From positions 45,447,453-45,511,452 of the forward strand of contig NC_088867.1 of the NCBI RefSeq assembly GCF_032884065.1: DNA of 64,000 nucleotides. The letters run 5' to 3'. Origin of the DNA: Artemia franciscana (Eukaryota > Arthropoda > Branchiopoda > Anostraca > Artemiidae). A program made the position numbers and the translations under genes. Shown piece after piece: positions 3,154-53,987 of this stretch. Within the stretch, counting starts at the first letter, position 1; every line of letters begins with the position of its first letter. The notes beneath the pieces are model-generated. The model was not told where the DNA came from. It searched no databases and saw only the letters and a list, made by a program, of their open reading frames with translations.

Positions 3154-4825
3154 TCAAACAGTTCATGGTAACAAACTGTAGTAAGGAGCAATCTGGCTCA
3201 ATAGTAACCGAAACTCTAAAAAACGCAATTTTTAAAACAATAGTTACATCAAAAGAATCGCATTTTAATGCTGATTTTAAATATATAAGTTTCATTAAGT
3301 TTACTTACCCATCAAAAGTTACGAGCCTGAGAAAATTTGCCTTATTTTGGAAAATAGGGGAAAACACCCCCTAAAAGTCATAGAATCTTAACTAAAATCA
3401 CACCATTAGATTCAGCATATCAGAGAACCTTATTGTAGAAGTTTCAAGCTCTTATCTACTAAAATGTGGAATTTTGTTTTATTTGAGAGAATGGATGCCT
3501 GTTGGTTTGTTTGTTTGTTTTTTTTTTGTTTTTTTTAGGGGTGATCGGTTTGACCTAGTTGTCCTAGAATCTTGTGAGAGGGCTCATTCTAACGGAAATG
3601 AAAAGTTCTAGTGCCCTTTTTCAGTGACCAAAAAAATTGGAGGGCACCTAAGCCCCCTCCCACGCTAAATATTTTCCGGAAGTCACCGGATCAAAATTCT
3701 GAGATTGCCATCTTATTCAGCATAGTCGAAAAACCTTATAACTATGTCTTTGCGGACGACTTACTCCCCCACAGTCCCCGTGGGAGGGGCTGCAAGTTAC
3801 AAAGTTTGACCAGTGCTTATATATAGTAATGGTTATTTAGAAGTGTGCAGACGTTTTCAGGGGGATTTTTTGGTTAGGGGGGAAGTTAAAAGAGGGGGAT
3901 ATGTTAGGGGAGCTCTCATTGGAGGAATGTATCATGGGGGAAGAATATTTCCATGAAGGGAGCGCAGGGTTTTCTAGCATTATTTAAAAAAAAACAATGA
4001 AAACATAAAGATGAAAAAGTTTTTTCAACTGAAAGTAAGGAGCAGAATTAAAACCTTAAAACGAACAGAAATTATTACGCATATGATGGGCTCACCTCCT
4101 CCTAATACATCGCTCTTTTCGCTAAAGTATTTTTAGTAATTTCAACTATTTATTCTACCGCGTTTGTGATTCAGGGGTCATTCTTAAGAAATTGGGACAA
4201 AATTTAAGCTTTAGTGTAAACAGCGAGGTACTCACGAGGGGATGAAGCCCTTCATATACGTAATAAAAACATCAGAATACAGAAGTTTGTTACGTAAGCT
4301 AATTTGTAAGTTACGTATATCTTTTACTAATAAAAACATTTGTAAAAAATTAGAAATTCTAGTTGCCTTTTTAAGTTGCCAAAAAACCGGAGGGCGACTA
4401 GGCCTCCTCCCCTGCTCCTTTTTTCTCAAAATCGTTTGATCAAAACTATGAGAAAGCCATTTAGCCAAAAAAATAAATATGCAAATATCGTTTTAAGCAT
4501 TCATCTGCGGAGAGCCAAAATGAAAACGTATTGATTCAAAAACGTTCAGAAACTAAATAAAAAAAAACAAGTTTATTTTACGGAAAGTAAGGAGCGACAT
4601 TAAAACTTAAAACGGACAGAAATTACTTCGTTTGTGAAAGGGGATGCTTCCTCATTAACGCCCCGCTCTTAACGCTAAAGTTTGTTACTATTTAAAAAAG
4701 TAGAGTTAAGAGAAAGAGTCAAAGTTTAACGTAAAGAGCGGGGCATTGATGAGGAAGCAGCCCCTTTCACATACGAAGTAATTTCTGTTCGTTTTAAGTG
4801 TTAATGTAGCTCCTTACTTTCCGTT
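3154..4825 (+). mobile_element. Hairpin-ended noncoding element, copy A
   Basis: One end starts TCAAACAGTTC.TGGTAACAA and the other end is a ~240-bp inverted repeat (4585-4825). The body matches, in order and in the opposite orientation, the element at 57575-59330. Shared blocks include 'gagcctgagaaaatttgc', 'ggctcattctaacggaaatg', 'caagttacaaa.tttgacca' and 'ggggtcattcttaa'. No coding frame exceeds repeat noise. It behaves like a nonautonomous mobile element of about 1.7 kb. Which enzyme moves it is not visible. Confidence 0.65.
4585..4825. repeat. ~240-bp hairpin (inverted repeat) at the element end
   Basis: The left arm 'gaaagtaaggagcgacatta...' is mirrored by '...taatgtagctccttactttc' on the right. 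The inner arm pair is 'gccccgctcttaacgctaaag' and 'ctttaacgtaaagagcgggg'. The same hairpin, variably decayed, recurs at 16636-16926, 17655-17930, 46690-46935 and 57605-57865, and in the second duplication unit. Confidence 0.8.
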
Positions 4826-41718: not shown

Positions 41719-42557
41719 GAATTACTCAGCTTGATGTCAAAGCACGAAAAGCAGAACTGATTTTGGCAGCACATGTCGCGAGTCATTCATCGATTATCAC
41801 TATTGACCACCTATCCACCATTATCAAGAGTGCTTTTCCTGGACCACTTTCCGAGGCAACGAAATTGAAGAGAACAAAATGTTCAGCCCTTATCAAGAAT
41901 GTTCTTGGACCAGAAAGTCTCCAAGAGATTGTTGCTGATGTTGGTGACAGCAGATATTCCCTTATTCTGGACGAATCGACCGACGTTGCCACCATGAAAT
42001 TCATGTGTATTTGTGTGAGATACTATAGCCCCAAGATGAAGAAAGTTCTTTGTGCTACTTTGGGCATGGTTGAAGTACCTTCGACCACTTCTGTGATTTT
42101 ACATCAAGAACTGGAAGACTTCTTAGCTTTATGTGGAATTCCCCTAAAAAATCTGATAGGTATTGGGACAGATGGAGCAAACAACATGTGTGGTGGCAAC
42201 CATTCGCTGTTCACGTTATTACGAGATGACGGGTTGCCTCAACTCCAACTCTTCAAATGTGTATGTCACTCCCTACATTTGTGTGCTTCCGAGGCTGTTG
42301 GAGAGCTTCCAAGCAATTTGGAGTTCATGCTCTCAGAGACTTACAAGTGGTTTAACGTTAGTCCTTTACGAAGAGAGGCATATCAGCAAATGTTCCAGCT
42401 CATAAACGATGGGAATACCCTGTTGAAAATGATTGCTCCTTCCAATACCCGTTGGCTGTCTCGATATAGAGCAGTCGTTCGCATACTCGAGAAGTATTCT
42501 GAGCTGTCAGCGCACTTTCGATTAGCGAAGGAAAAGGAACGTTGCTACACTGCCTGA
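41719..42557 (+). pseudogene. hAT transposase, N-terminal part (before internal stop)
   Basis: Open from the 3' splice site at 41718. Family features of the RNase H-like hAT core include LDESTD (first catalytic Asp at 41970-41972), GIGTDGANNM (second Asp at 42171-42173), FKCVCHSLHLCAS, and the conserved RW of NTRWLSRYRAVV near 42450. It is most like the animal hAT subgroup that also gave host ZNF862/ZBED-type genes. Transposases of this group cut and paste DNA in the nucleus. The frame is broken by TGA at 42555-42557, in a place (KERCYTA-stop-MLHDMY) where an Arg codon is likely, consistent with CGA to TGA. The same frame resumes at once. Confidence 0.85.
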
Positions 42558-43487
42558 ATGCTCCATGATATGTACCTCGATGAACGAAATAAGGCATATA
42601 TTGTTTTCTTGAACCCATTATTGGCCGAATTTCAGAGAATTAACCTCCTTTTCCAACACACTAACGCAGATCACTTTCGTTTATTTCAAGAGCTAAAAGA
42701 GTTTGTATTAAGTCTTCTGCAGTCAATATTGCACACGTCTGCAGTGTCATTAACAGTGAATATGGACTTCGAAATTTATTACCTTCCTACAGCCCAGGTT
42801 GACTACGGATACGAGTTCAATTTGGAGCTTGAAAGATCTAAGCTGACCAGTCATCAAAAGGAAGAAGTAAAGCTGCGTTGCCTCAAATTTCTCAAGACAG
42901 CAGCTAGAGCAGTTTTAAAGCGCTTGCCCCCAGCTCTTGATTCTCTGCTGAAACTGAAAGTGCTTCCTCCGACCATTTGTTTGTCGCAGTTGCGTCCTCG
43001 ATTTAGTGATTTGCCTTTGGATGTTATTCCAGTGCTGAATATTAGTGAGTTAGAGAGTCAGTGGAGAAGACTCTTGGTAGTTGACTGGGCATCAGCTTGT
43101 GGTGGAGAAATTCCAAGTGACTCTTGTGAATTCTGGGTCAAGGTCCTGCACCATCTTGATCCAGCTGGTGTTCCTCCATGTCGTGACTTAGCAAGGTGGG
43201 CATTGACCCTCCTCAGCCTGCCAATAAGCAATGCTGTAGTTGAGAGGTCATTTTCTATGATGAATATTAAGAAGAACAAACTTCGGAATCGAATGTTGTT
43301 GCCTATGCTGAACTCAATAGCAGTCTTTCGTCTTTGGTTGTCAGTGTGTGGTATTTGCTGTTCCCAGTTTGAGCCTACTAAAAAAATGTTGCAGTTCAAC
43401 AGTGAAATCTATAGGCTTGGGGGTTCCACTGCAACCACAGATATAAATTTTAACAATGATCTTGATGACATACTGGTTTTACTGTAG
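42558..43487 (+). pseudogene. hAT transposase, C-terminal part with dimerisation domain
   Basis: In frame with the preceding part after one stop codon. About 310 codons comprise the insertion domain and a C-terminal hAT dimerisation region: EFWVKVLHHLDPAGVPPCRD, WALTLLSLPISNAVVERSFS, then MMNIKKNKLRNRM. The Glu of ERSFS (43242-43244) is the expected third catalytic residue. The natural stop is TAG at 43485-43487. Apart from the single internal stop the whole reading frame is intact, so inactivation is recent, or the stop is allelic or a sequence error. Confidence 0.85.
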
Positions 43488-46935: not shown

Positions 46936-47504
46936 AAAACTTTTGTTTCTGTGCGTGTTTTTTTTTCAGCGGTCGTCGTATCGACCAAGTAGTCCTAGAA
47001 TGTCGCAAGAGGGCTCATTCTAACGGAAATGAAAAAATTTCCCAAAGTCAACGGATCAAAATTCTTAGATAGCCATTTTGTTCAAAATAGTCGAAAATCA
47101 TAATAAATATGTCTCTGGGATGACTTACTCTCCCACATTCCCCAAGGGAGGGGCTGCAAGTTACAAACTTTGACCAGCGTTTATATACAGTAATGGTTAT
47201 TGGGAAGTGTGCAGATGTTTTCAGGGGGATTATTTTGGGTTAGGGTGAGGGGTTAAGGGAAGGGGTTTATGCGAGAGGATCTTTCTTTGGAAGAATATGT
47301 CATAGGGGAAGATAAATTCAATGAAGGGGGCACAAGATTTCTAACATTATAATAAAAAAAATATGAAAATTAAAACTTCAAACGAACAGAGATTATTACG
47401 CATATGAGGGATTCATCTCCTCCTAAATACCTCGCTCTTTACGCTAAAGTATTTTTAGTAACTTCAACTGTTTGTTTTACGGCCTTTCTGATTCAGGAGT
47501 CATT

Positions 47505-47630
47505 AAATAACGACGAAAACCACACTGCCTTTTCATCACGAACACCAAAAACAAGAGAAACAATAGGGAATTGCTTCCCACTGTCTTAAAAAATCCCCTA
47601 TTGTTCTTCTTGTTTTTGGTGTTTGCAGAG
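47505..47630. mobile_element. 126-bp insertion with inverted arms
   Basis: Interrupts the foldback-family block 'gattcagg.gtcattctta'. GTCATT lies on both sides (47499-47504 and 47631-47636). Inside, 47541-47569 ('aacaccaaaaacaag...') is inverted at 47593-47622. It is most likely a small hairpin element with a 6-bp duplication. The inverted arms are internal rather than terminal, so its class is unclear. Confidence 0.5.
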
Positions 47631-47905
47631 GTCATTCTTAAAGAGTTTTGGCAAAATTTCAGCTTTAGTGCAAAGAGTGAGGTATCAACGGGGGGACAGA
47701 CCCCCTCATATACATAATAAAAATACAAGAATATAAAAGTTCGATACGTAAGTTAATTCTTAAGTTGCGTATATTTTTTACTAATAAAAACGTTCGTTAA
47801 AAATTAAAAGTTCTAGTTTCCTTTTCAAGTAACCAAAAATTTGGAGGGCAATTAGGCCTCCTCCCCGCCCTTTTTTCCCAAAATCGTCAGATCAAAATTT
47901 TTTTG

Positions 47906-48075
47906 TAGCTTCCGGTAAAAAAAGAAACAAGACAGTCACCTGTTGTGTCTCTAACTATTAACATTACTCAATTGACATTATCAAACGCTTTTTTAAGTCC
48001 AAAAATGCAACATATAACTAATTTTTTCCTGATCCATAATTTTCAATTAATCCACTTAAAACAAACACTCTATCT
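47906..48075 (-). pseudogene. LINE reverse transcriptase fragment, downstream piece
   Basis: Minus-strand frame RVFVLSGLIENYGSGKKLV, then ICCIFGLKKAFDNVN and a stop. This is the part of the LINE RT domain around the first catalytic motif (usually F-L-D-F-K-K-A-F-D). Here the Asp position reads Gly, so the polymerase would be inactive. It joins the 51941-52985 part when the intervening transposon and one ATCT are set aside. Confidence 0.8.
48072..48075 (+). repeat. Target-site duplication ATCT, left
   Basis: The same four bases follow the right end at 51937-51940. Confidence 0.85.
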
Positions 48076-48102
48076 CGGCCCTCCAAAGGTAAAAGTACGT
48101 AT
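48076..48102 (+). repeat. Transposon terminal inverted repeat, left
   Basis: 27 bp, a perfect inverse of 51910-51936. It contains the element's internal ~20-bp repeat word, so the likely transposase-binding site is part of the end itself. Confidence 0.95.
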
Positions 48103-48251
48103 ATGCACAATTTTTCACTTCTCGACTTAATGCCACCACCATACTAAAAAAAATGTGCTGAATCGAATGGTATATGTAAGAAGGCTCTAGTCCAAATATT
48201 AACGGAAATAGCATATGGATAAAGTACGTATCTGAAAAATTTCTGGGCGCA

Positions 48252-48368
48252 TCCAAAGGTAAAAGTACGTATCTGTGTAGATACGTACTTTCACCCTTGG
48301 TACGTACTTTTGCCTTTGGCCGGCACATTAAAATGAGAAAGGAAACCAAAGGTCAAAGTACGTATATG
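48252..48368. repeat. Subterminal repeat cluster, left
   Basis: Copies of the ~20-bp end word lie at 48253-48272 (plus), 48281-48300 (minus, diverged), 48301-48319 (minus) and 48346-48367 (plus, one change). The first two face each other around a short centre and form a small palindrome. This is typical of clustered transposase-binding sites. They could also act on the promoter, since the gene starts about 90 bp further on. Confidence 0.8.
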
Positions 48369-48458
48369 TCATGATTCAGCACAATCATCATTGTTTGTTT
48401 ACCAGAGCAGAGCTGAACAACCAGCCAACTCTGAGCTATTAAAGAGTACTGGCATAGA

Positions 48459-48520
48459 ATGTCAAGAGGCTTTCTAAATTTACAGAGAGCGTTGATTATA
48501 CAAAAGGAAAGAGATTTAAG
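48459..48520 (+). CDS. DUF7869-type transposase, candidate exon 1
   Basis: ATG at 48459 opens MSRGFLNLQRALIIQKERDL and runs to a consensus GTAAGA donor at 48521. The next good acceptor (TTTTTCAG, ending 48987) joins it in frame to a Ser/Thr/Glu-rich stretch (TLACQASTNEASTSNTDLPS). The intron would be 467 bp. Support is the matching splice phase and the absence of any in-frame ATG between the stop at 49075 and the long frame, which forces the start to be upstream. Confidence 0.6.
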
Positions 48521-48987
48521 GTAAGAAAATTTTGCTTCATGCCATTTTGGAACCTTTTCTCCAAGTAGGCCTAAACCCTCTGGTAAAACCCCATCTGTAC
48601 TACCAGGTGGGTACAACAGACCCGCTACAACCAGTTTACACAGCTAGCTATGTAGCTGTCGAATTAGTACAGGAGAGCAGCGTCATACCAAATTACCAAC
48701 CAACCACCTAAAGCCATTTTTTTAGTATTGCCTACAAACATGACTTACCTTTGAAATAAAATAAAAAACAAGGGATGCATCAAAATAACCCCTAGAACCT
48801 TCTCTGTCATCTGAGATAATCAGGGATTAGTTTGGTCAACTATTACAACATTGAGAAAAAATTGAGGGCCTCTAAATATTGCTTACCTTAGAAACAAAAA
48901 AAAATGTATCAAAATAGCCCTAGAACCCCCTCTTTCATCTGAGATAATCAAGGTTGATAACAAGTTCTTAGAATTCCAATTTTTCAG

Positions 48988-49090
48988 GACATTGGCATGT
49001 CAAGCAAGTACAAATGAGGCATCAACTTCAAATACCGACTTGCCATCTTCCAGTGAAGAGCAACGAGGAGCTAGTTCCTGTTCCCCCCAG
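48988..49090 (+). CDS. DUF7869-type transposase, start of exon 2 (before frameshift)
   Basis: After the acceptor at 48986-48987, the frame from exon 1 stays open through SSSEEQRGASSCSP and reaches a run of six C at 49083-49088. Beyond that run this frame stops at once, while the frame of the long downstream ORF opens at 49078. One more C in the run would join them. The simplest reading is a single-base loss, or a homopolymer sequencing error, in an otherwise continuous gene. Confidence 0.6.
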
Positions 49091-51414
49091 AAATCATCCA
49101 GATAAATCAAACAACAGACATATCACCCAATTTTTCTGGACATTCTCGATCAAGGGACACCACTGATGGAGAAGCTAAAACTAAGGCACAGTTAAAACAC
49201 TTTGCTGATGAAGAATTCGAAAAAGAAGATTTAAGTAGAGGTGATAGTGATGAGTCTGATATTGACTGGGAGGACGTTGAAGGGACATTTGGGTCTTCTG
49301 ATGATGAAAGGCAGACAACTTTGAAGAAGAGGAGAAAGCTCTTTACAGATTTAGTTCCTCTTTCGGTCAGTAATGATCTTACATCAGATCATCCAGAGTA
49401 CAATCTGATCCATTTTCCTACCGATCCTTTCCTGCCCTTGGAAGATTCGGCTTCGGATGCAGCAGCTTATGAGACCCAAGATGACCAGCTAAATTTGGAC
49501 AATCAACCATCTAATGAAAGCAACAATGCTGTTTGTGAACCTGATTCCTCAGACCATGTCATGTGTGTAATTGACGCTGTAGCAGCAAGGTCTGTGGGAC
49601 AAGATAGAGAAAATAGACGTGAAGAAAATGGTGGAGGAGAAGGAAGGTCTATTGTTGACCTTACTCCAAAACGAGTTCGCTCAGAAAAAGATAAATTTGA
49701 AAGAGATGTTAAGAAGTATCCATTTCCTGACGAACCTGGCTGTAAATCTAACAAATGTACAAACTCATGTTTGAGGTTTTCCAGTGTAGAATTCAGGAAA
49801 ATTTATGACACATGTTGGAGCAAAGAATATAAATCAAGACAAATGTGGCTCGCTTCTTTGCTGACATTCCTACCAGTTAAAAGAAGGACTATTGCCCCAG
49901 AAGCTGCGTGTAGAAAAAAAACTACAGTTAGGTACAGCCTTCCCAGAAATTTGAATGAATACCCCACACTTACCCCAAAAGTTGAAAACTTGCCAGTTTG
50001 CAAGTCTACATTCCTTGGTTGTCTAGGATTTGGCAAGAATGACAGAGTGATTTTTACAATCAAGTCAAAAATTGAAAGGGATGCTCTTGGGAATGAGCTC
50101 AAGGACGGAAGGGGCCATAAAGTGGCAGGGCCACCAAACAAAGTTGATCGAAGCCTTGTGATGCAGCACATTGAAAGCTTTCTGCCAGCAATTCCACACT
50201 ATCGTCGAGCTCACGCTCCAAATGTTCGGTACCTTTCTCGTGATTTGAGCTACAAATTTATGGCAGAAGACTTTAATGAAAAATATCCAGCAAATAAAAT
50301 CTGTGATGAGACATATAGGAAGATTCTTAATGGTATGAAAGTATCATTGTGCATGCCCCAAAGTGACAGCTGTGACATTTGCACACTATTAAAAGAGAAA
50401 GTAGGGGCTGCGAGAACTCCTGGTACAAATGGTGAGGCAACCGAGAAAGAGACTGAACTGTACAGAAAGCACAGAGATCTTGTTGAACAGGTTTCAAAAG
50501 TATTTTCTGAAGATAAGCAGAAATACGAAAAAGATTCAACTACCATGTTGTTCACCGTGGACCTACAAAAAGTGTTATTGCTTCCCATCATGCACAGCAG
50601 AAAGGAGGCCTTTTTTCTATCAAGACCCGTGTGTTTTAATGAGACGTTTGCCCCCGTTAAGGCCACCCAACAAAACCAGAACCTTTGCGTTATTTGGAAC
50701 GAATCTCGACAAGGACGTGATGCACCTGATATAGGTAGTGCATTCCACAAGGTCTTAAAGATGAATAGGGATATCTTGCACTTCATTTTTTATACTGACA
50801 ATTGCTGTGCCCAGAACAAAAATTGGACAATTTTTAGTGAATTTGTACTGATAGTCAACAGTGAAGGAGGACCTGAAACGATTCGTATCAAGTATCTAGT
50901 GAAAGGCCATACGCACATGGGGGCTGACTCCATACACGGATCGATTGAGTCTCGAATTCGAAAAAGGGATGTTCTTGACTTTCAAGATTTGTGCGACACC
51001 ATAGAAAAAAGTAGAAAATTCACGAAAGCCGTGAAAATGGACATAGAAGACTTTTGCCAGTGGAAAAGCTTAAAAGCTCCTGGCATCGTCATGAAGAACT
51101 TGGGCGTGACCATTGATGAGTTCAGTGAGGTCTGTTTTAAGAAGGGAAAAACAGAACTGTTCTATAAAACTAGCCCTGAGGGTGAAGAAAAGAGTCTAAG
51201 TTTTGTGCCAAAAAAGCTGGTTAGTACAATCAAAGAGGCAAAGTATCCTTTGCCAGATCCGATTCTTGGCGCAAGGGGGGTAAAGCCAGAAAAGAAAAAG
51301 GCCATCTTGGAAAAACTTGTACCTTTTATGAATGAGAATCGCCGTACATTTTGGCGCACTATGCCTTCATCAACAGCTTCTGTCGATTTGCTGAAGCACG
51401 GCTGTGTTTCTTAG
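49078..51414 (+). CDS. DUF7869-type putative transposase, main reading frame
   Basis: About 779 codons are open, with no ATG before 49561, so the real start is in upstream exons. Order (numbers counted from 49321): acidic N-terminus; C141-x4-C-x3-C cluster (CKSNKCTNSC); a Cys pair region CMPQSDSCDIC (C344, C351, C354); then a core with FTVDLQK (D414), FYTDNCCAQNKNW (D493) and YLVKGHTHMGADSIHGSIE (H530, H532, D536, E543). This matches the DUF7869-type proteins common in invertebrate genomes, where YTDNC..QNKN and KGHT motifs recur. An RNase H-like DD(E/D) transposase is an inference from the motif layout and from its place alone between inverted ends. Stop TAG at 51412-51414. Confidence 0.85.
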   Translation: MFPPEIIQINQTTDISPNFSGHSRSRDTTDGEAKTKAQLKHFADEEFEKEDLSRGDSDESDIDWEDVEGTFGSSDDERQTTLKKRRKLFTDLVPLSVSNDLTSDHPEYNLIHFPTDPFLPLEDSASDAAAYETQDDQLNLDNQPSNESNNAVCEPDSSDHVMCVIDAVAARSVGQDRENRREENGGGEGRSIVDLTPKRVRSEKDKFERDVKKYPFPDEPGCKSNKCTNSCLRFSSVEFRKIYDTCWSKEYKSRQMWLASLLTFLPVKRRTIAPEAACRKKTTVRYSLPRNLNEYPTLTPKVENLPVCKSTFLGCLGFGKNDRVIFTIKSKIERDALGNELKDGRGHKVAGPPNKVDRSLVMQHIESFLPAIPHYRRAHAPNVRYLSRDLSYKFMAEDFNEKYPANKICDETYRKILNGMKVSLCMPQSDSCDICTLLKEKVGAARTPGTNGEATEKETELYRKHRDLVEQVSKVFSEDKQKYEKDSTTMLFTVDLQKVLLLPIMHSRKEAFFLSRPVCFNETFAPVKATQQNQNLCVIWNESRQGRDAPDIGSAFHKVLKMNRDILHFIFYTDNCCAQNKNWTIFSEFVLIVNSEGGPETIRIKYLVKGHTHMGADSIHGSIESRIRKRDVLDFQDLCDTIEKSRKFTKAVKMDIEDFCQWKSLKAPGIVMKNLGVTIDEFSEVCFKKGKTELFYKTSPEGEEKSLSFVPKKLVSTIKEAKYPLPDPILGARGVKPEKKKAILEKLVPFMNENRRTFWRTMPSSTASVDLLKHGCVS

Positions 51415-51476
51415 CTGCCTGCAGTATTTCAGTGATTTCTTTTGATTTTTTTTATTTTTTAACTTCTAATTATTTG

Positions 51477-51482
51477 AATAAA
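51477..51482 (+). terminator. Polyadenylation signal AATAAA
   Basis: Lies 62 bp after the stop codon of the transposase gene, in an A/T-rich context, and is well placed to end its transcript before the right subterminal repeats. Confidence 0.7.
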
Positions 51483-51626
51483 AAAATGACTTGTTGTACA
51501 TGCTTCATACGTGGTTTTACCTTCGGTATACGTCATAGATACGGGGTTTTGGGCAGAGTAAAAGTGCGTTTTATGTTTTATACAGACTTTTACCTTTGGG
51601 ACTTCATTCGAATTCGAGTCTCGAGT

Positions 51627-51720
51627 CAAAGGTAAAAGTACGTATATGTCATATACGCACTTTTACCTTTTGAGAGCGCCTCTTTATATGAGTAACGGTC
51701 CAATGGTAAAAGTACGTATC
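51627..51720. repeat. Subterminal repeat cluster, right
   Basis: The ~20-bp end word is at 51627-51648 (plus), 51652-51671 (minus) and 51700-51719 (plus, one change). Diverged forms lie at about 51515-51600. The first pair is palindromic around 'atgtcat'. It mirrors the left cluster. Confidence 0.8.
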
Positions 51721-51909
51721 TACTGTTTCAGGCTTCGGGGCAGTAATAATAGAAAATTTTACTTAAAAATATGAAATCCCCATATTTGTTTACCTATTTA
51801 ACTAATTTCCAGAATTAGCCAGTGTCCAGTTTCACCGTAAACCGTATTTGAAGCTCTCAAAAGTACTCAAACTTTGAGCCGTGATTTATCGAAATAATGA
51901 AAAGTGTAG

Positions 51910-51936
51910 ATACGTACTTTTACCTTTGGAGGGCCG
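51910..51936 (-). repeat. Transposon terminal inverted repeat, right
   Basis: Reverse complement of 48076-48102 over 27 bp, without mismatch. Confidence 0.95.
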
Positions 51937-51940
51937 ATCT
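51937..51940 (+). repeat. Target-site duplication ATCT, right
   Basis: Matches 48072-48075. The minus-strand LINE frame crosses this point. Confidence 0.85.
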
Positions 51941-52985
51941 GTGGTACTATAATCTTTTCTAAAACTTCTCTGTTCTTCTTTTGCGACTCCAATACACTCT
52001 AGCCAATCATTTAACTGGCTCTCTAAAATTTTCTCTAAGATTTTGCTAAGCATAAGAGCTAAGGCTATCACCAAGTAACTCTCATGATCCCTGGCACTCC
52101 CCCTTTGGAATATAGGTACCATTATCGATGTGCGTCATGTAGAAGGCCATACTCCATCACTAATAATTCTATCAAATATGTAAACTTATACAGGTAATAT
52201 CACATTAAGTGACCTCTTTATCAAAATTGCTCGTTCTCCATCTGTTCCTGATCCAGACCTTCCTTTTATATTCCTGACAACTTTCCTAACTTCTTCTGAC
52301 GACACATCTCTTACCAATTCATAACCATTTTCTCTCAAAAGGAACAACTTTAAATCGCTCCAATTTTCCCTAATTGCATTCCCCTTCTATGCTCTCTAAA
52401 TAACTTGACGAAGTATCGGCCTCTGGGATATCAGATAGGGCCTATCTTTTATGATCATTTGATTTCATTTTTGACCAGAAATCTTTTGTATTACCTAGAT
52501 TAAAAGCTAGCTCAAGCTCCTTTTGCTCTTCTCTAGGGTTCTGCCACTTTTTTTCTTTTTATCAACCTTATATATTTTCTTCTTTTTCTTTAAATCTTAA
52601 GAATAATTCATGATTTTCCTCCGATGAAGAGTAATTTTTAACTGCCTCTAGTAGATCTTCTTAATAATTTTTCATAACTTTCCATTCGTTGTCAAAGAAA
52701 TTTACACTTATTTTCATATTTAACCTTTCAGACTTTAGAGCACAATTATAAATAACTGAACCCAATTCACTCAGTGTCATATTAACATCCATTGATGATT
52801 TGTACATAATTTTAAGCCTTTTAATTGCCTCAGGCCTTAAAAGTTTATTTCCCAACAACTCCAGCTCCTCGCCACTCCACTTGGTCATTAAATGTCTCTC
52901 ATAATAAGCACGTTCTTCAAAATCATCTCTAGTCTTCTTCACTACATTTGTTGGTACTCCACCCATAATAATTAAAATTTGTGAT
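51941..52985 (-). pseudogene. LINE ORF2 linker and reverse transcriptase, upstream piece
   Basis: Minus strand in order: GGVPTNVVKKTRDDFEERAY and KWSGEELELLGNKLL (52966-52840); SELGSVIYNCALKSERLN (about 52760); NPREEQKELELAFNLGNTKD (about 52540-52470); SSEEVRKVVRNIKGRSGSGT (about 52310-52250); then RT blocks VPIFQRGS, LSKILEKILESQLNDWLE, EEQRSFRKDYSTTD up to the insertion point. This is the classic order of an APE-type LINE ORF2 before the first catalytic Asp. Several stops and frame changes show an old copy. The match to the left-flank piece dates the transposon as younger. Confidence 0.85.
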
Positions 52986-53987
52986 CTTGAATATCCATCG
53001 TTTTGACATGGTAAAAAAATAGGGCAAGCTAGTTAGAGCAGCCCATTCCATAGGAAAATTCCTTTTCAAGCAGGGAATAAAACGAGTTATTTTTCCATTG
53101 AGAATAAAGCGACACTGAAACTATAACGAATGTAAATTATCCTATACATGATGGTTGTTATCGCTCTCCTTAACCCCCTACTATTTACGCTTTGACTAGT
53201 GTGTTCCTGAAAACACTACGAAATGCAACAGTTATAGCCAATTAGTAGCTACTATTGTCATATTTATTTATCTCCTCAATATGCAGGAGGATGCCACTCC
53301 CCTCAAAGCCCTATTTGTTAGGCGTAAATTCAACCTTTACCAGCTTTGATGTTAAAAACTAGTTTTCCTTTCAAACACCCTATTGTGCAACAATAGAAGA
53401 GCTATCACCCTCTTTACATCAATATAGAAAGCTTGGTTCAAATATATTTCTCCAAACAGAAGAATTTGGGGGGGGGGCAAATTCTTCATCTCTGATATTG
53501 ATGTGAACGATGTTTGATGCAAATTTTAATATTTTGGCTTAAAAAATGTACGTTGAAGAGTACCCAGAGTCGTTTTATTGGGAGACAGAGGAGGCGATTG
53601 CCCCGGGTGCAAAAATTCTAGGAGGACAAATTCCAATTAAATAATGTCACGGTATTTATTATTTTGAATTTTTTTATTTTTACTATACTAAATTAGATGG
53701 CGTAGTAGGTAGTAAGCATAAGTAAACTGAATCCAACATTCTCCTTCATCTCTATCTATAAAAAATAAATAACTAGACTGAATTTGATTCATTTTTATGT
53801 TTTTGTAACGTTTGCATATACATTTTATTATTAGATGACATTTTTTTCAAAATGGGACCTGCAAATATTTGTGAAACAAAAGGAGGCAACAATCAAGATA
53901 TTGCCCTGGGCGTAAAAGGCCAGAACCACAACTGGATGAGCCCCCCTCCCCATACGCATACACACAAATCCACATCTGACACTGACA
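52986..53987. other. No gene seen
   Basis: Noncoding. Words 'ttgcccc.ggg..gcaaaa' near 53597 and 53903 hint at diverged internal repeats. There is a G run at 53469-53477. Confidence 0.35.

What the first reader, a model, noticed from the sequence alone, without database searches (positions are those of the whole stretch)
48076..51936. Complete DNA transposon built around a DUF7869-type protein
Seen directly: 27-bp perfect inverted ends starting CGGCCCTCC, ATCT on both sides, one spliced gene inside, and subterminal repeats. Known: DUF7869-type proteins are abundant and mostly unassigned in invertebrate genomes. Inferred: the protein is the transposase of an element group with a 4-bp target duplication and GGCC ends that I cannot match to a named superfamily. 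D414, D493 and the H530/D536/E543 region would be its catalytic core.
Basis: partly seen in the sequence, partly recalled or inferred. Interest (0 to 1): 0.88.

Follow-up and report, generated by a model that had tools for sequence, protein, structure and literature searches.

The report
Recently active Sola-like brine shrimp transposon
This is a complete, recently multiplied cut-and-paste jumping gene in what appears to be the brine shrimp genome, and it suggests that a protein domain listed as having unknown function is the enzyme that moves such elements.

Summary
Window 48076-51936 is a DNA transposon with 27-bp perfect inverted ends and an ATCT duplication. Of 33 examined, 32 have both ends, and all 32 have a perfect 4-bp target duplication that varies from site to site. 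Twenty of these 32 encode a full-length spliced protein of 829 aa; the window copy is frameshifted. The protein carries Pfam DUF7869. Its predicted core resembles retroviral integrase and Mos1 transposase. In 82 chosen relatives the catalytic triad is D-D-D (81, 82, 82 of 82); the third residue is D536, not E543. A second family in this genome, 26% identical in protein, has 4-bp duplications in 8 of 11 copies examined. Across the joined flanks a LINE reverse-transcriptase-like frame stays open, fitting exact insertion. The 4-bp TSD, DDD transposase, size and TIR length match the published description of Sola. No labelled Sola transposase was available, so membership (about 0.65) is inferred. 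The mechanism is ordinary cut-and-paste; what is new is the assignment of DUF7869 as a Sola-like DDD transposase with a very young, intact family.

The parts
48072..48075 (.). Left copy of the 4-bp target site duplication (ATCT)
   Evidence: Sequence; 32 of 32 two-ended copies have a perfect 4-bp TSD
48076..48102 (+). Left terminal inverted repeat, 27 bp, 5'-CGGCCCTCCAAAGGTAAAAGTACGTAT
48084..48365 (.). Left subterminal array: 6 copies of the 19-bp motif CAAAGGTAAAAGTACGTAT in both orientations (0 to 5 mismatches; the first lies in the terminal repeat); inferred transposase binding sites
48459..48520 (+). Exon 1 (62 nt, starts ATG TCA AGA GGC)
   Evidence: Exon length 62 and GT donor in 32 of 32 two-ended copies
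48521..48987 (+). Phase-2 GT-AG intron, 467 nt
   Evidence: GT and AG in 32 of 32 copies; leaving it out gives an 829-aa protein in 20 of 32. Not tested with RNA
48988..51414 (+). Exon 2: transposase with DUF7869 (profile match at about 50794-51072); catalytic D414 codon 50560-50562, D493 codon 50797-50799, D536 codon 50926-50928 (numbering of the 697-aa ORF from 49321)
   Evidence: Pfam PF25273 E=1.1e-11; conservation in 82 sequences; predicted RNase H-like core
49083..49088 (+). C6 run: frameshift of the window copy relative to the other copies
   Evidence: an assembly error is not excluded
51507..51928 (.). Right subterminal array: 6 copies of the same 19-bp motif in both orientations (0 to 3 mismatches; the last lies in the terminal repeat)
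51910..51936 (-). Right terminal inverted repeat, 27 bp
51937..51940 (.). Right copy of the 4-bp target site duplication (ATCT)

Best explanation
An autonomous cut-and-paste DNA transposon family of the Sola kind in what appears to be Artemia franciscana. Its 829-aa DUF7869 protein is an RNase H-fold DDD transposase. Inferred steps: the protein binds the repeated 19-bp subterminal motifs and the 27-bp ends, cuts the element out, and joins it to staggered cuts 4 bp apart in new DNA with only a weak palindromic preference; repair of the gaps makes the 4-bp duplication. Shown here: ends, TSDs, multi-copy young family, intact genes, conserved DDD, predicted fold. Inferred: catalysis, motif binding, and Sola membership (about 0.65; the DNA-transposon-with-DDD-transposase part about 0.95).
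Against: No sequence labelled Sola could be compared, so membership rests on TSD length, triad, size and TIR length. The Sola2 families in PMC3627910 have AT-rich TSDs, while this family's are mixed (e.g. CCCG, TGCG). PMC3985635 (passage) groups Sola with RNase H1-like proteins, whereas the best solved matches of this model are integrases and Mos1 and RNase H1 appears only weakly (2qkk_N, E 0.13). The AlphaFold model is modest overall (pLDDT 64.8, pTM 0.48) and Foldseek gave 0 of 448 matches at E<=0.001. 3 of 11 copies of the second family show no TSD at the expected point. No expression or transposition evidence. The window copy cannot make the full protein as assembled.
Confidence: 0.76

Rival explanations
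1. A cut-and-paste DDD transposon of a superfamily distinct from Sola: DUF7869 proteins form their own lineage with 4-bp TSDs.
For: Pfam still lists DUF7869 as unknown and no held paper mentions it. The TSD preference here (mostly W-G-Y-W, never G first nor C last in 31 sites) differs from the AWWT given for Sola2. PMC3985635 places Sola near RNase H1 (passage), while this model's best solved matches are integrases and Mos1.
Against: 4-bp TSD, DDD triad, size and TIR length all fit Sola. The second DUF7869 family has A-N-W-T duplications in 8 of 8 TSD-bearing copies, 6 of them AWWT as published for Sola2.
Confidence: 0.2
2. The DUF7869 protein is a passenger, and the family is moved by another element's transposase.
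For: No transposition data; the window copy is itself frameshifted.
Against: It is the only long gene between the ends, the DDD triad is nearly invariant, and a different set of ends with the same TSD length also encloses a DUF7869 gene.
Confidence: 0.02
3. Member of another named superfamily (Kolobok, piggyBac, hAT, Dada, KDZ, Academ, Ginger).
For: Kolobok and piggyBac also make 4-bp TSDs; piggyBac has a DDD motif (PMC9499001, abstract in listing). Ginger1 makes 4-bp TSDs (passage in PMC10045372).
Against: Kolobok and piggyBac TSDs are TTAA-specific (passage), and 0 of 31 sites here are TTAA. Pfam scans reported only DUF7869, at E<=10 for the window product and E<=1 for P0001. Features of hAT, Academ, Dada and KDZ are recalled and were not tested one by one.
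Confidence: 0.02

Closest known systems
Sola superfamily (Sola1, Sola2, Sola3)
   Same: 4-bp TSD, DDD transposase, 3.9 kb size and 27-bp TIR inside the published ranges; the second DUF7869 family has A-N-W-T TSDs, near the AWWT of Sola2
   Different: Transposase sequence not compared (none labelled was available); this family's TSDs are not only AT-rich; ends start CGGCC; solved matches point to integrase and Mos1 rather than to RNase H1, beside which PMC3985635 puts Sola
Mos1 mariner transposase
   Different: Mariner relatives in general duplicate TA (passage); phmmer against solved structures did not list Mos1; long N-terminal part here
Retroviral integrase core
   Different: DDE rather than DDD (recalled); here the gene lies in an element with TIRs and no retroviral genes seen
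piggyBac and Kolobok
   Same: 4-bp TSD
   Different: TTAA target only; no Pfam match to either in the window product

Membership tests
Sola superfamily | 4-bp target site duplication | tested here: met
   32 of 32 two-ended copies
Sola superfamily | DDD transposase | tested here: met
   D524/D603/D646 (P0001 numbering) are D in 81, 82, 82 of 82 chosen relatives; the catalytic role is inferred
Sola superfamily | Size mostly 2-9 kb; TIR 11-1124 bp | tested here: met
   3861 bp and 27 bp against the ranges in PMC10741241
Sola superfamily | Transposase similar in sequence to Sola1, 2 or 3 | not testable with these tools
   No labelled Sola protein held; Bao et al. 2009 not held
Sola superfamily | RNase H1-like clade (helix variant) given for Sola in PMC3985635 | not tested
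   Passage seen; model coordinates were not examined for the helix variant; best solved matches are integrases and Mos1
Sola2 group | AT-rich 4-bp TSD as in the two amoebozoan cases (not shown to define the group) | tested here: not met
   31 sites include CCCG, TGCG, CGCA, AGCA. The more distant L046 family comes close: 8 of 8 TSDs A-N-W-T, 6 of 8 AWWT
piggyBac / Kolobok | TTAA target | tested here: not met
   0 of 31 sites are TTAA
RNase H-like transposase/integrase fold | b1-b2-b3-aA-b4-aB-b5-aC core with acidic residues on b1, b4 and aC | tested here: met
   Predicted order E518-531, E546-555, E564-570, H578-591, E597-603, H612-622, E630-636, H644-658 carrying D524, D603, D646; structural alignments. 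Model, not experiment; Foldseek alone gave no match at E<=0.001
hAT, Dada, KDZ, Academ, Ginger, Mariner | Family-specific domains | tested here: inconclusive
   No Pfam match other than DUF7869; weak homologues can be missed

The most novel reading that the evidence does not exclude
DUF7869 proteins are the transposases of an invertebrate-wide superfamily separate from Sola, with DD(73-87)D(40-43)D cores, invariant C-x2-C and H positions before the core, 4-bp TSDs and multiple subterminal binding sites; the Artemia family is a living, intact representative.
Probability: 0.2. Interest if true: 0.7.

Novelty: new member of a known kind. Interest (0 to 1): 0.45.

Why it matters
Relatives were found in beetles, moths, stick insects, a psyllid, a sand fly, two gastropods and brine shrimp (names; only part of them carry the DUF7869 label), and the name gives no function. 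Two families with mapped ends and 4-bp duplications, plus a nearly invariant DDD triad, turn the label into a testable enzyme assignment. The window family has full-length genes in 20 of 32 nearly identical copies, so it may still be mobile in a widely kept laboratory animal and could be a source of an active transposase of a poorly studied type.

Full report
WHAT IS THERE. The window segment 48076-51936 (3861 bp) has perfect 27-bp inverted ends and is flanked by ATCT on both sides. It holds one long gene: exon 1 at 48459-48520, a GT-AG intron of 467 nt, and exon 2 at 48988-51414. A 19-bp motif, which makes up the inner 19 bases of each end, occurs 12 times in both orientations near the two ends (up to 5 mismatches); 200 shuffles of the element gave a mean of 0.26 and a maximum of 2.

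COPIES IN THE GENOME. The genome search listed 31 full-length matches including the window's own, plus one lacking the left end, one in two pieces and two cut at query base 3599 (the tool scores only the best candidates, so these are lower bounds). I examined 33 places (the window copy and L009-L040); the two cut at 3599 were not among them. Of the 33, 32 have both ends, and all 32 have a perfect 4-bp duplication; none has a 5-bp one. L031 and L035 share their flanks, so these are 31 independent sites.

TARGET SITE. The 31 duplications vary (ATCT, TCAT, TTTT, CCCG, TGTA ...). None begins with G and none ends with C. Counted on both strands there is a weak palindromic preference, A-C-[W-G-C-W]-G-T. 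Its summed information over 12 positions is 2.46 bits; of 1000 sets of random window positions, 1 reached this (mean 1.15, maximum 2.99). Background positions came from the window only, so the test is rough.

AGE AND INTACTNESS. Thirty copies were aligned (L035 dropped as a duplicate, L039 as one-ended, L040 as deleted inside). They differ from their majority sequence by 0.03-0.52%, and the mean pairwise difference is 0.288% over 435 pairs. Twenty of 32 two-ended copies encode a full 829-aa protein once the intron is left out; 12 do not. The window copy is one of the 12: it has six C where 31 of the 32 others have seven (in one the pattern was not found), and its reading ends after 59 residues. 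An assembly error in this copy is possible. Minor alleles per site at codon positions 1, 2 and 3 are 0.050, 0.042 and 0.057, and 0.037 outside exon 2, so the copies show no sign of purifying selection since they spread.

EMPTY SITE. On the minus strand the right flank carries a LINE reverse-transcriptase-like reading (label by recalled motif). When the element and one ATCT are left out, the frame stays open across the junction (...FRKDYSTTDRVFVLSGLIENYGSGKN) and meets a stop 18 codons past it, after which RT-like residues go on. This fits precise insertion into an older LINE copy. A search for an uninterrupted copy elsewhere did not complete.

HOST. Two proteins named Artemia franciscana lie on contigs of 40,553,139 and 45,252,357 bases, the lengths of C6 and C17 here. 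The published female A. franciscana assembly is 1.27 Gb with 21 chromosome-size scaffolds and N50 45,252,357 (PMC11492255, passages read). Two figures differ: the paper gives 6,486 scaffolds and a longest one of about 67.3 Mb; G000 has 6,468 contigs and C1 is 71.5 Mb. It may be another version of that assembly.

THE PROTEIN. Pfam gives only DUF7869 (E=1.1e-11). A protein search returned 15 relatives: one 98% identical from an ENA contig of 3951 bases (P0001), the others 29-37% identical. A search with three other DUF7869 proteins of this genome returned 97 (only the best 7,993 candidates were scored). I aligned 82 sequences: 78 of the 113 retrieved proteins, 35 left out by choice (mostly shorter or lower-scoring ones), plus four genome translations. 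D524 is D in 81, D603 in 82 and D646 in 82 of 82; E653 is E in 63. The spacing, in the 81 with all three, is 73-87 residues between the first two and 40-43 between the last two. The one exception at the first position is L047, which has E.

A SECOND FAMILY. A different DUF7869 gene (L046; 26% identity to P0001, E=2e-33 for the pair) lies in an element with ends 5'-CGTCGCTGTTACGCC. I examined L046 and ten other copies picked from the matches. Of these 11, 8 have a perfect 4-bp duplication at exactly the same point (ACAT, ATTT, ATAT, ATAT, ACTT, ATAT, ATTT, AAAT); 3 do not (L050, L066, L068). Two divergent DUF7869 families thus share the 4-bp duplication, which ties it to the protein rather than to one set of ends.

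WHAT IT WORKS LIKE. The evidence points to a normal cut-and-paste DDD transposase. Shown: ends, duplications, copies, intact genes, conservation, predicted fold. Inferred: binding to the subterminal motifs, excision, strand transfer across a 4-bp stagger.

WHAT IT BELONGS TO. Sola is described as encoding a DDD transposase with 4-bp TSDs, mostly 2-9 kb, TIRs of 11-1124 bp (PMC10741241, passages). Repbase divides it into Sola1, Sola2 and Sola3 (PMC4455052, passages). Sola2 elements in two amoebozoa have AT-rich 4-bp TSDs, AWWT in one (PMC3627910, passages). The window family fits the superfamily description but not the AT bias; the second family comes close to it (6 of 8 AWWT). Against membership, PMC3985635 groups Sola with RNase H1-like proteins (passage), while this model's best solved matches are integrases and Mos1. 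The founding paper (Bao 2009), Yuan and Wessler 2011 and a Kojima review were not held, so no labelled Sola sequence could be tested. I put Sola membership at about 0.65. No held paper contains 'DUF7869'; a search for Sola with Artemia returned two papers, by their titles on a yeast and a penaeid shrimp genome (listing only).

VERDICT. Real, well supported, and probably a new, young member of a known kind. The main gain is a likely function for DUF7869.

Noticed in passing
window 41763-43487 (+): Two adjoining open frames in one frame (264 and 309 aa) that look by recalled motifs like one hAT-type transposase interrupted by a stop; not tested by profile.
   Followed up: no
window about 47000-48075 and 51941-53200 (-): The transposon sits inside a LINE reverse-transcriptase-like frame that stays open across the joined flanks.
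   Followed up: partly
G000:C18:4934962, 4945557 and 4956152 (L041, L011): Three copies spaced exactly 10,595 bases apart; the first two match only to query base 3599. A tandem duplication of a 10.6-kb unit or an assembly effect.
   Followed up: no
L046 family, query points 2200/2201 and 2528/2529: Many copies carry about 100 and several hundred extra bases at the same two points, while the L046 type lacks both: lost introns or shared insertions, in copies that keep terminal repeats.
   Followed up: no
L042-L045: Older relatives of the window element at 67-80% DNA identity; L043 and L044 still show CGGCC at an end.
   Followed up: partly
P0037, P0041, P0068: DUF7869 proteins that also carry PF02338 or PF04843 (recalled as protease-type domains), possibly captured passenger domains.
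   Followed up: no
G000:C17:33248475-33268693: Four DUF7869 matches in a row about 6.6 kb apart, each with one TGA and one TAA inside.
   Followed up: no
L047:2049-4277 (+): A long open DUF7869 frame with E instead of the first catalytic D; may be inactive or host-adopted.
   Followed up: no
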